A program made the position numbers and the translations under genes. A stretch of DNA of 64,000 nucleotides, from positions 17,709 to 81,708 of the forward strand of contig JAKFVU010000012.1 in NCBI GenBank assembly GCA_021732025.1. The letters are read 5' to 3'. Source of the DNA: Candidatus Obscuribacterales bacterium (GTDB lineage: Bacteria > Cyanobacteriota > Vampirovibrionia > Obscuribacterales > Obscuribacteraceae). This document shows, one piece after another, positions 49,515 to 53,122 of the stretch. Position 1 is the stretch's first letter, and each line of letters begins with the position of its first letter. The notes under the pieces were generated by a model. That model did no database searches, had not been told where the DNA came from, and was given only the letters and a program-made list of their open reading frames with translations.

Positions 49515-51272
49515 TTAAACACTTGGCAGCTGAAAGCTTAGCTTAGCGCCCCCGGCTGGGGCATTCTCGGCACGAATATTGCCACCGTGACGCTCGACAA
49601 TTGTCTTACAAACAGTAAGACCCAAACCAGTGGATGGCACATTTTGCTGAGACTGGTTCTCAGCCTGCTGATACGCAGCGAAAATAGTAGCCAAAGCATT
49701 CTCAGGAATACCCGAACCGCTATCGGTCACAGAGAAGTGCACCACACTTTTTACCAGCCGCGACTCAACCTCAATAGTGAGACCCTCGGGGGTAAATTTA
49801 ATAGCATTAGAAAGAAGGTTGATTAGAACGCGCTCGAGCTCCCATTTGTTGCACGCCACCATGGCAAATTCTGCTCTGGACAACACATTTATCTGTTTCT
49901 TCAGGGCCAGACTGCGAACCGCATCAATGGCATCGCTGACAACAGTTTGATTGATGCAAAAATCGAAATCACGACTATCATCATTGCTATTCTCGTCAGC
50001 GCAATTGAGCTGATTGAGCAAAATGTCCAAGCGTTCAACATTGCTCTTCACCGCCCTAACGTGCTTACTATCTACTGTTGCCAAAGCGGCACAGGCCTCC
50101 TTAACTTGGGCCAGCGGCGAACCTAACTCGCTAGTCAAATATGTACTCATCTGTTCGCGCACAAGAGAAATGTTGGTGGCATCGGTTATATCTATAGCTA
50201 TAGCAAAATACGATTGATACAGCTCACTCCAGCTTACGGTCCAACTTGTGTGAATAGGCATCGAGCGACAATTGCTCAAAGTCAATTTGGTCGTCATCTT
50301 TTTGCCAGCATCACGAATACTTCGAGACTCTCGCGCACTTTCAAAAACAGTTTCAAGACGCAACCGGACAGCGGCATCGAACAGCTCAAAGAACGCGACT
50401 TTACCAGCGATTTGAGAGTCAAGCTGCAACCAGTTAAGGGCAGTGTGATTAGCCATGAGTATTTGTCCATTGCCATCAAGGCGACAGATCAATGCCGGAG
50501 ACATCTCGTATAGTTTCTTCTGCTCATCGTAAGCAGATCTGAGCTCGTCGCTGATTGAGTGCAGACTCTTATCAATTGCCTCAATTTCAGTCGGGGCTTC
50601 GATAACAGAGTTTAACTCTTTGCCACCACCTAGTCTTCTGGCATTCTCAAGGATAACTGACAGAGGCCGATATACCAGCTGAATAATTAGCAAAGTCATT
50701 GCCACTAATGACAGTGTCAAGGCAAACCAACCACCAAGCAAATAATTACGCAGAGCTGCACTTCTGGCTAAGTTGTCTGCTTCAACACGGTTGCGCTCAT
50801 CAGTGGCCTCTCGTGCCGCACCAAGCAATATTTCAAACAAGACCAGCGATTTCTCAGCATTGGCATTGGCTCCCGAGCCATTGCCTTGAGCTGGGGCCGC
50901 GGCAAAGTCGCGCAGTTTTGAAGCATAGCCTTTAGCAAGCTCTAACTGTTTTCTCTTTTGCGGAGAAAGCACTGATAAACTCAGTATGTCACCGATGCGT
51001 CCACTCCACTCTTTAGGCAAAGTAGACTCTTGCAGCATAGGGTCCATGATATGACTATCGGTTTGAAATTTGACAAAAGTCATATATTCAAAAAGATCGA
51101 TAATCAGTTTATTAATGCGCTTAGAACACTCTTCAGCTTCAAGCTCATGTTTAATAGCGCTATCGGCAAGACCAAGTTGATAGTTGATCATGGCCAAGAA
51201 CGAGAGCTGACAGACAAGCGGCAGCGCAAAGAGTATCAGACCAGCCAAGGCCAGCGACATCCGCTTCTTCAT
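49515..51272 (-). CDS. Histidine-kinase-like protein with PAS and intact HATPase domain but H-box His replaced by Ser
   Basis: YLTSELGSPLAQVKEA (S at 50130-50132 where His is expected); NLLSNAIKFTPEG, VTDSGSGIP, STGLGLTVCKTIVERHGG intact. Confidence 0.88.
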   Translation of the reverse strand: MKKRMSLALAGLILFALPLVCQLSFLAMINYQLGLADSAIKHELEAEECSKRINKLIIDLFEYMTFVKFQTDSHIMDPMLQESTLPKEWSGRIGDILSLSVLSPQKRKQLELAKGYASKLRDFAAAPAQGNGSGANANAEKSLVLFEILLGAAREATDERNRVEADNLARSAALRNYLLGGWFALTLSLVAMTLLIIQLVYRPLSVILENARRLGGGKELNSVIEAPTEIEAIDKSLHSISDELRSAYDEQKKLYEMSPALICRLDGNGQILMANHTALNWLQLDSQIAGKVAFFELFDAAVRLRLETVFESARESRSIRDAGKKMTTKLTLSNCRSMPIHTSWTVSWSELYQSYFAIAIDITDATNISLVREQMSTYLTSELGSPLAQVKEACAALATVDSKHVRAVKSNVERLDILLNQLNCADENSNDDSRDFDFCINQTVVSDAIDAVRSLALKKQINVLSRAEFAMVACNKWELERVLINLLSNAIKFTPEGLTIEVESRLVKSVVHFSVTDSGSGIPENALATIFAAYQQAENQSQQNVPSTGLGLTVCKTIVERHGGNIRAENAPAGGAKLSFQLPSV

Positions 51273-53122
51273 GGTTGACCTCGATGAGGTTGTCCTTGAT
51301 GTAGTTTCTCAGCGCTGCTATCAACCACATCAGAAAATTCAATAGAGGCTTCACTGTATTGGCCGTCGACTCGCTGCAAAGACAACTTGGCACTATGACC
51401 ACGCAAGACTGTCTCAACTAGATAGAACGACATCGGCAAAGCGAGCGAAAGAATCGAGTCTTGAGTCACTAAACTTAACTGCCGGCCAGATGCAAGAGAT
51501 GCAGAGCCCTGTGACGATTGCATTTTCAAATTGAGAGTGACTACTCCAGCACCGGGCCGTATGGTGGCAGTGAACAGATCGCCTGGCAGCGCAGTTTGCA
51601 ATAAAAAGCCAAAGACAATCTCGAACACTTTCTGCAGCTGTAACAAATCACCGGCAATAGTCTGCGTGCCTCCAATTACTTCTAACTCAACTTCATCATG
51701 CCCCTTAGAGACACGCTCTAGAGATAGCTCTGTCACTTCGAGCAAGTCAACGGCTGCCAAATTCAAGCCCAAATTGCCTGACTCAATCTTCTTCCAATCA
51801 AGAACATCAGTAACTAGCTCAGTCAGCTTGGTACTCTGAGTAAAGCCGCTCGCTAGCGCTAGTCGTTGATCGGCGCCAAGTTCAGGGCCTTTGGTAGCCT
51901 CTAATAACTGGAAGGCCATTGAAATAGACATTAGCGGTGTGCGCAGGTCATGGTTGAGCGAAGCAATAATGTCTTCGCGAAACATCTCAACCCTCTTTGC
52001 TTTAGTAATATCATGGGATATACAAAGGAACTCACGGGTACTAGCATTCCATCTTACAATCCACAAAAAATATGCATCAATGCCACTGGGGTCACTATGC
52101 TTCAGTTCCACTGTATGTGGTGCACTACTATTTTTTGCTTGAGCCAGACAGCTCTGCAGCAGACTCACCGAGTCATGCTCTAACAGGTCAAAGACCTTTG
52201 CCCCAATCAGTAGACTACTAGGATAACCCCAAAATACTTCCGACAACTGATTGACAGCAGTGAGGCGCCCTTCCTCGTTCACCGAGCAGAGAACATCGCC
52301 AGAATACTGCAAAACGGCAAGCTGCTGCTCATGCAGCTGATTGAGAGCGGCAATTGAACTAGCTAAACTGGCATCAAGCGCCTCAATTTCATCACCACCG
52401 CCAAGAGCCGCGAGCTTGTCACCGCGACTGTACTGTTCAATACGTGGTGGCAATTTTTGCAGACGCTTAACCAGAAGTTGATTAAAGGCCCAAAGGGAAA
52501 AAGCGCTGGCGAATGTAATAATTAGGATGCTACTGGCCGTAAGCAAAGCGACTGTCTGAGCCTCTTTTATTAAGGCCTCACGAGCCAATTCTTGCAGAGA
52601 ATTTTCGGCGGCCAAACTATGATTAAGTAGTGTTCTAGCCGACAAGGCAATCAGGTAAACTTCAAACCTGGTGCTATTCTGACGGCCGTGTACGTCAACT
52701 TTCGAAATTTGCTGATAGAGAGCCTTTAAGCGATCGCCTAACTCATTGAATTCTTCGGCAATGACTTTCATGCTTGGATTACGTGCCACAGCTTTGTCAA
52801 GCGAGATCTGTGACTTCTCCACCAGCTCCATAGTGCTGGCGCGAATAACCTGAGCCTGAGGACTGAAGATATCTTCTTTTACGACCGAGCTGTTCATGCC
52901 TTGCAAGAGCGCTACTTCAAACTGCTGCAATCCGACAAGAGCAGCTACCGAAGCGCTATGTTTCAAATACTCATCTTCAAGCCTTGCCAGTGACAGCGAG
53001 GCACCACTGACAATAACTAGTGCACTCAAAATTGAGGGCACCAGCAGCAACAATATTTTCAGACGCAGTGATAATGTCAATGGCACAGCAGAAATGCTAC
53101 CACTACTCGCACTACTAGACAC
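51269..53122 (-). CDS. Histidine-kinase-like protein with PAS and intact H-box but degenerate ATP-binding domain
   Basis: IIASLNHDLRTPLMSISMAFQLLE intact; C-terminus (LQKVFEIVFGFLLQTALPGDLFTA...) lacks N, G1 and G2 box motifs. ATGA overlap with 49515-51272. Confidence 0.88.
   Translation of the reverse strand: MSSSASSGSISAVPLTLSLRLKILLLLVPSILSALVIVSGASLSLARLEDEYLKHSASVAALVGLQQFEVALLQGMNSSVVKEDIFSPQAQVIRASTMELVEKSQISLDKAVARNPSMKVIAEEFNELGDRLKALYQQISKVDVHGRQNSTRFEVYLIALSARTLLNHSLAAENSLQELAREALIKEAQTVALLTASSILIITFASAFSLWAFNQLLVKRLQKLPPRIEQYSRGDKLAALGGGDEIEALDASLASSIAALNQLHEQQLAVLQYSGDVLCSVNEEGRLTAVNQLSEVFWGYPSSLLIGAKVFDLLEHDSVSLLQSCLAQAKNSSAPHTVELKHSDPSGIDAYFLWIVRWNASTREFLCISHDITKAKRVEMFREDIIASLNHDLRTPLMSISMAFQLLEATKGPELGADQRLALASGFTQSTKLTELVTDVLDWKKIESGNLGLNLAAVDLLEVTELSLERVSKGHDEVELEVIGGTQTIAGDLLQLQKVFEIVFGFLLQTALPGDLFTATIRPGAGVVTLNLKMQSSQGSASLASGRQLSLVTQDSILSLALPMSFYLVETVLRGHSAKLSLQRVDGQYSEASIEFSDVVDSSAEKLHQGQPHRGQP

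What the first reader, a model, noticed from the sequence alone, without database searches (positions are those of the whole stretch)
49515..53122. Split, complementary histidine kinase pair: one has the His, the other has the ATPase
Seen: two overlapping HK-like genes (4-nt ATGA overlap). The upstream protein (51269-53122) keeps NHDLRTPL (His codon 51950-51952) but its C-terminus has no N, G1 or G2 box. The downstream protein (49515-51272) keeps all ATP-binding boxes (NLLSNAIKFTPEG, DSGSGIP, GLGL) but its H-box reads TSELGSPL, Ser for His (50130-50132). Inference: they act as an obligate heterodimer in which one CA domain phosphorylates the partner His in trans, forming an AND gate with two PAS sensor inputs.
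Basis: partly seen in the sequence, partly recalled or inferred. Interest (0 to 1): 0.8.

Follow-up and report, generated by a model that had tools for sequence, protein, structure and literature searches.

The report
Complementary half-broken histidine kinase pairs
Two neighbouring sensor genes each encode a histidine kinase that has lost the half of the machinery its partner keeps, and relatives of this bacterium have arrived at the same complementary split many times, even fusing both halves into one protein, so the two very probably work only as a pair.

Summary
In the window (genus Candidatus Obscuribacter), gene A (51269-53122 -) keeps the phospho-acceptor His, but its C-terminus is a decayed catalytic domain without N, G1 or G2 boxes. 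Gene B (49515-51272 -) keeps a complete ATP-binding domain but has Ser for His. They overlap by 4 nt (ATGA). In databases, 35 of 35 A homologs keep the His and lack HATPase; 11 of 11 B homologs lack the His and keep HATPase.

The pattern is much larger than the finding. The same genome has five such pairs. Across the family I scored 38 pairs with both lesions, tandem or naturally fused into single ~1,240-aa proteins. In 38 of 38 the lesions are complementary, and no half carries both. They nest among tandem or fused pairs that are still intact, with at least 7-9 separate origins.

Best explanation: an obligate two-subunit kinase in which B's ATPase phosphorylates A's His in trans, and A passes phosphate to a response regulator (divergent OmpR-type gene 53202-53885 here). 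A DHp heterodimer is likely but not shown; the AND gate is untested. The nearest known systems are split kinases (CheA3/CheA4, FasB/FasC). This is a new variant: recurrent, reciprocal, HisKA-type.

The parts
51269..53122 (-). Gene A: membrane sensor HK with TMs, HAMP-like linker, PAS, intact DHp with phospho-acceptor His, decayed CA domain (617 aa, start uncertain)
   Evidence: homologs
49515..51272 (-). Gene B: membrane sensor HK with TMs, weak PAS, decayed DHp (His replaced by Ser), intact CA/HATPase (585 aa)
   Evidence: homologs
51269..51272 (-). 4-nt ATGA overlap (A stop / B start), suggesting translational coupling
51950..51952 (-). A His391 codon, H-box NHDLRTPL (phospho-acceptor, HDxxT phosphatase-type motif)
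   Evidence: invariant in 35 homologs
50130..50132 (-). B Ser381 codon at the phospho-acceptor position (TSELGSPL); S/T/L/I in homologs
51323..51727 (-). A pseudo-CA domain (approx. residues 466-600), ATP-binding boxes gone
   Evidence: hhalign; purifying selection
51413..51439 (-). LPMSFYLVE motif in A at the place of the G2 box, conserved in A homologs
49797..49820 (-). B N box (NLLSNAIK)
49704..49724 (-). B G1/D box (DSGSGIP)
49617..49634 (-). B G2 box (STGLGL)
53202..53885 (+). Divergent OmpR/PhoB-type response regulator, likely phosphate acceptor; conserved beside pair-1 orthologs in two other genomes
   Evidence: Response_reg + Trans_reg_C; L028, L029

Best explanation
A and B are the two obligate subunits of one split histidine kinase. 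B supplies the ATP-binding catalytic domain and phosphorylates the His of A in trans, most likely inside an A:B heterodimer held together by their DHp helices. A then transfers the phosphoryl group to a response regulator, here probably the divergent OmpR-type RR at 53202-53885, and may also dephosphorylate it (HDLRT motif). The arrangement arose from a duplicated, overlapping tandem pair of complete kinases that became mutually dependent: once partners pair with each other, one may lose its His and the other its ATPase. Shown by sequence: reciprocal lesions, conservation, gene overlap, recurrence, natural fusions. Inferred: physical heterodimer, trans-phosphorylation, RR partner, signal integration.
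For: (1) Motifs in the window. (2) 35/35 A homologs keep HD[LM]RTPL and have PF00512 without PF02518; 11/11 B homologs lack the His, keep N/G1/G2, and have PF02518 without PF00512. (3) Purifying selection: dN/dS about 0.10 for both genes of pair 1, 0.22 for A's pseudo-CA, 0.04-0.08 in pair 2. (4) In the same genome, the only HisKA ORFs without HATPase (apart from one cut by a contig end) and the two with the weakest HATPase scores all sit beside an H-less kinase: C16, C31, C23, C59, C10. (5) Across the family 38/38 doubly lesioned pairs are reciprocal, including 14 in a later set not used to form the idea; no half has both lesions. (6) Both gene orders occur, and 21 natural fusions put the two complementary halves in one chain. 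(7) H-loss falls in 11 clades, mirrored by CA decay, nested among intact pairs. (8) Partner trees match: Mantel r 0.91 (19 tandem) and 0.89 (15 fused), 0 of 2000 permutations. (9) FasB/FasC and CheA3/CheA4 are precedents with experiments (PMC12675982, PMC3591291).
Against: No biochemistry. B's DHp is so decayed that Pfam HisKA misses it, so DHp pairing is not certain. Many homologous pairs have no response regulator next door, so the target is unclear there. Trans-phosphorylation inside a dimer needs the right DHp loop handedness, which was not measured. The structure prediction gave no coordinates to test the interface, and pTM was only 0.48.
Confidence: 0.78

Rival explanations
1. Kinase and substrate as separate homodimers: a B homodimer phosphorylates an A homodimer (as CheA4 acts on CheA3-P1), with no DHp-DHp heterodimer.
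For: Also explains every reciprocal lesion; CheA3/CheA4 works by transient P4-P1 contact (PMC3591291). B's DHp is strongly decayed.
Against: Natural fusions and matched partner trees favour a fixed 1:1 complex. The pairs derive from two full kinases that each keep a DHp region, aligned end to end. FasB/FasC pair only as heterodimers in two-hybrid tests.
Confidence: 0.12
2. One partner is a regulator, not an enzyme subunit: A is a phosphotransfer or phosphatase protein fed by another kinase, and B modulates it without donating phosphate (RetS/GacS-like).
For: Known HK pseudokinases such as RetS and DivL work this way (own knowledge), and A's profile has RetS and DivL structures among its hits.
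Against: A pure regulator would not need invariant N, G1 and G2 boxes in every B. The rule that the lesion in one half is matched by the opposite lesion in the other (38/38) is not predicted.
Confidence: 0.07
3. Neutral decay of redundant duplicate kinases (pseudogenes).
For: Lesions accumulate progressively, with intermediates (L101, L135, L192, L194).
Against: Low dN/dS in both genes, open frames, invariant motifs at 30% identity, no half with both lesions and no non-reciprocal pair.
Confidence: 0.02

Closest known systems
FasB/FasC of group A Streptococcus (PMC12675982)
   Same: Two sensor-kinase-like proteins from adjacent genes; heterodimer and not homodimer in two-hybrid; the His used is on one (FasC H246), the needed kinase domain on the other (FasB); FasC proposed to be a pseudokinase.
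   Different: FasB still has candidate His residues (H241, H284); a single system. Here the lesions are fully reciprocal in sequence, recur in many lineages, and include fusions.
CheA3/CheA4 of Rhodobacter sphaeroides (PMC3591291)
   Same: Neither autophosphorylates alone; the catalytic partner phosphorylates the His of the other in trans; CheA3 is also a phosphatase.
   Different: CheA architecture (His on a P1/HPt domain), whole domains missing, chemotaxis cluster. Here two full-length membrane HisKA kinases, each with a decayed domain still in place.
Hik36/Hik43 of Synechocystis (PMC7656254)
   Same: Split kinase in the same phylum (Cyanobacteriota); HPt on one protein, CA on the other.
   Different: A CheA gene split into two at distant loci, not a duplicated HisKA pair.
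RetS/GacS and DivL pseudokinases (own knowledge; PDB hits)
   Same: HK-like proteins without a working core that act through contacts with another HK.
   Different: The partner there is a complete kinase; no mutual complementation.
M. tuberculosis HK1-HK2-TcrA (Rv0600c-Rv0601c-Rv0602c; named in PMC8965865, details from own knowledge)
   Same: ATPase and His on separate neighbouring proteins with one regulator.
   Different: As recalled, each protein carries only part of the core, rather than two full-length sensors; not tested here.

Membership tests
HisKA-type sensor histidine kinase (complete) | HisKA DHp with phospho-acceptor His in the same protein | tested here: not met
   Met in A (1.7e-11), not met in B (no HisKA hit, Ser for His)
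HisKA-type sensor histidine kinase (complete) | HATPase_c with N, G1, G2 boxes in the same protein | tested here: not met
   Met in B (2.5e-24), not met in A
Split histidine kinase (functional class) | Phospho-acceptor His and ATPase on two separate proteins, each lacking the other's half | tested here: met
   fused relatives keep the halves in one chain
Split histidine kinase (functional class) | Neither protein autophosphorylates alone; the mixture phosphorylates the His | not testable with these tools
   needs purified proteins
CheA3/CheA4-type split CheA | P1/HPt domain and CheW-like P5 domain | tested here: not met
   Pfam finds PAS, HisKA and HATPase-type domains and only weak sub-threshold noise besides
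FasB/FasC-type heterodimeric HK pair | Adjacent HK-like genes, pseudokinase partner, heterodimer | tested here: inconclusive
   Adjacency and pseudokinase partner met; heterodimer not testable; sequence homology to FasB/FasC not examined

The most novel reading that the evidence does not exclude
In this one bacterial family, duplicated histidine kinases have repeatedly and independently become obligate, asymmetric two-subunit kinases (or single-chain pseudo-heterodimers by fusion), with one subunit only the catalytic donor and the other only the acceptor. This would be a recurrent evolutionary route from homodimeric to heteromeric kinases, rather than a one-off split.
Probability: 0.65. Interest if true: 0.85.

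Novelty: new variant of a known kind. Interest (0 to 1): 0.78.

Why it matters
Histidine kinases are textbook homodimers, and natural obligate heteromers are rare and mostly single cases. Here is a natural series, from intact tandem pairs through half-decayed intermediates to fully complementary pairs and fusions, with several independent origins. It makes the step from homodimer to obligate heteromer, the trans geometry of phosphorylation, and two-sensor integration directly testable, and offers natural orthogonal split kinases for synthetic circuits.

Tried and rejected
Structure of A (ticket p5d75144df057) did not finish after many polls (last), so the pseudo-CA reading rests on hhalign. 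The model of a natural fusion piece (pLDDT 78, pTM 0.48) matches HK cores by Foldseek, but no coordinates are released, so the interface could not be measured. The phylum-wide search with a fused protein scored only 2 candidates per genome and had no positive control, so it was discarded. A class-wide profile search found the fusions only in this family (none in 62 sampled genomes of other families, with at most 11 candidates scored each). Pseudogene decay was rejected by dN/dS and motif invariance. Library searches did not find a paper describing this in Obscuribacter.

Full report
What was claimed and what is there. Both ORFs, the ATGA overlap, the His codon and the Ser codon are where stated. 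Pfam sees HisKA without HATPase in the upstream protein (A) and HATPase without HisKA in the downstream protein (B), even at E up to 10. One refinement: A's C-terminus is not empty. It aligns to canonical catalytic domains by profile comparison (91%, E 1e-6), but the ATP-binding boxes are replaced. A and B align end to end as profiles, so they are paralogous full-length kinases that each decayed in a different half.

Conservation. Protein database searches gave 34 further A entries and 10 further B entries in two paralogous lineages. All 35 A proteins keep HD[LM]RTPL and none has a HATPase domain. All 11 B proteins have S, T, L or I at the His position and keep all ATP boxes. Matching longest-contig lengths in the two lists suggest that A and B travel together. 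dN/dS between two congeneric genomes is about 0.10 for both genes, and 0.22 for A's pseudo-CA; in pair 2 it is 0.04-0.08 (dS is near saturation in pair 2). These are functional genes.

The same genome. A Pfam census of the window's own genome gives 50 HisKA places. Three lack HATPase in their ORF (C16, C31, C23), apart from one cut by a contig end (C83). The two lowest-scoring HATPase matches in the genome are in C59 and C10, both in HisKA ORFs. All five are next to an H-less kinase with an intact CA. In C59, C10 and C23 the order is reversed (B first), so this is not one operon copied around.

The family. Records close to the window's pairs are named Candidatus Obscuribacter and Cyanobacteriota. 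I collected tandem or fused kinase pairs from genomes of the same family and scored the His position and the ATP boxes with profiles built from intact kinases of the same set. Of 46 pairs, 21 are intact on both sides, 24 are reciprocal, 1 has only the His lost, none is non-reciprocal. A second batch fetched afterwards, as a test, gave 14 more reciprocal pairs, one with only the His lost (L194), and one (L192) where the partner of the CA-decayed half keeps its His but has lost the acidic neighbour (VSHGMRTPLE). In total 38 of 38 pairs with both lesions are complementary, and no half carries both. Among the 61 kinases of the first set outside pairs, one lacks the His, and it lies at a contig end where a partner would be cut off.

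Natural fusions. Many pairs are single ORFs of about 1,220-1,305 aa with two complete sensor-kinase units. In the usual form the first core has lost its His (S, F, R, Q, Y, N, G and others) and keeps its ATP boxes, and the second keeps HDLR(T/S)P while its ATP boxes decay (L114, L116, L117, L129-L132, L136, L137, L182-L191, L193). Others are intact in both cores (L115, L134 three times) or nearly so (L133). One (L135) has lost only the His. These look like ancestral and intermediate states.

Origins. On a tree of 188 kinase halves, H-less halves fall in 11 separate clades. Nine of them contain pairs with a CA-decayed partner. Some deep placements involve long branches, and the tree was a quick one. 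On the CA side the window lineage and L199/L200 join, perhaps by long-branch attraction, so I count at least seven to nine independent complementary splits. If lesions fell at random on either partner, that gives p of about 0.008 to 0.002. Partner distance matrices correlate at 0.91 (tandem) and 0.89 (fused), with 0 of 2000 permutations as high: partners are inherited as units.

Mechanism. The simplest reading is a two-subunit kinase: B binds ATP and phosphorylates A's His in trans, and A passes phosphate on. A heterodimer through the DHp helices is the likeliest geometry, because both keep the DHp-CA layout, because fusions exist, and because FasB and FasC behave so in experiments (PMC12675982). 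That step is inferred. The regulator is probably the divergent OmpR-type gene, conserved beside pair-1 orthologs and placed likewise beside an independent split pair in L119; many other pairs have no regulator nearby. Two sensors on one enzyme imply signal integration, but nothing here shows an AND gate.

Known relatives. CheA3/CheA4 and Hik36/Hik43 are split CheA proteins, a different architecture (PMC3591291, PMC7656254). A SMART count in PMC3591291 lists HisKA proteins without HATPase (3.66%) as possible split kinases, so the class was foreseen. FasB/FasC is the nearest experimental case. What is new is reciprocal loss in full-length HisKA kinases, recurring in one family, with intact ancestors, intermediates and fusions.

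Limits. Loci were pulled with queries related to A and B, so frequencies are not unbiased; the reciprocity count does not depend on that. Genomes are mostly MAGs. No biochemistry, no interface model.

Noticed in passing
L134 3585-15030 (G044:C2): Three consecutive fused double histidine kinases of about 1,250-1,310 aa in a row, all intact in both cores.
   Followed up: partly
L192 1016-4777 (G020:C290): Fused pair with the opposite polarity: first core keeps His with decayed G1/G2, second keeps His but has lost the adjacent acidic residue (HGMRTP) with intact CA; a possible early stage of complementary loss.
   Followed up: partly
L034 (G003:C133) 1476-2935: Pair-2 A gene appears frameshifted within the DHp region in one MAG, and B is shortened; sequencing error or real decay not resolved.
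   Followed up: no
L009 5779-8025 and 1298-2125: Pair 2 lies between a PHP-domain protein gene and a PspA/IM30 gene, an order kept in other genomes; suggests a link to envelope stress.
   Followed up: no
window 54029-54853 +: Low-complexity Lys/Gly/Asp/Glu-rich ORF with no Pfam match, next to the RR; a similar ORF is found at the same place in the L028 and L029 orthologous loci.
   Followed up: no
window 54903-55787 and 56783-57679 (-): Two similar TPR-repeat secreted-looking proteins near each other; a related gene lies just after the kinase pair in L028 and L029.
   Followed up: no
L123 94-2271: H-less kinase with intact CA (LGENLHAPLA) at a contig end, sister of the own-genome C23 B protein; predicted to have a CA-decayed partner beyond the contig edge.
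   Followed up: no
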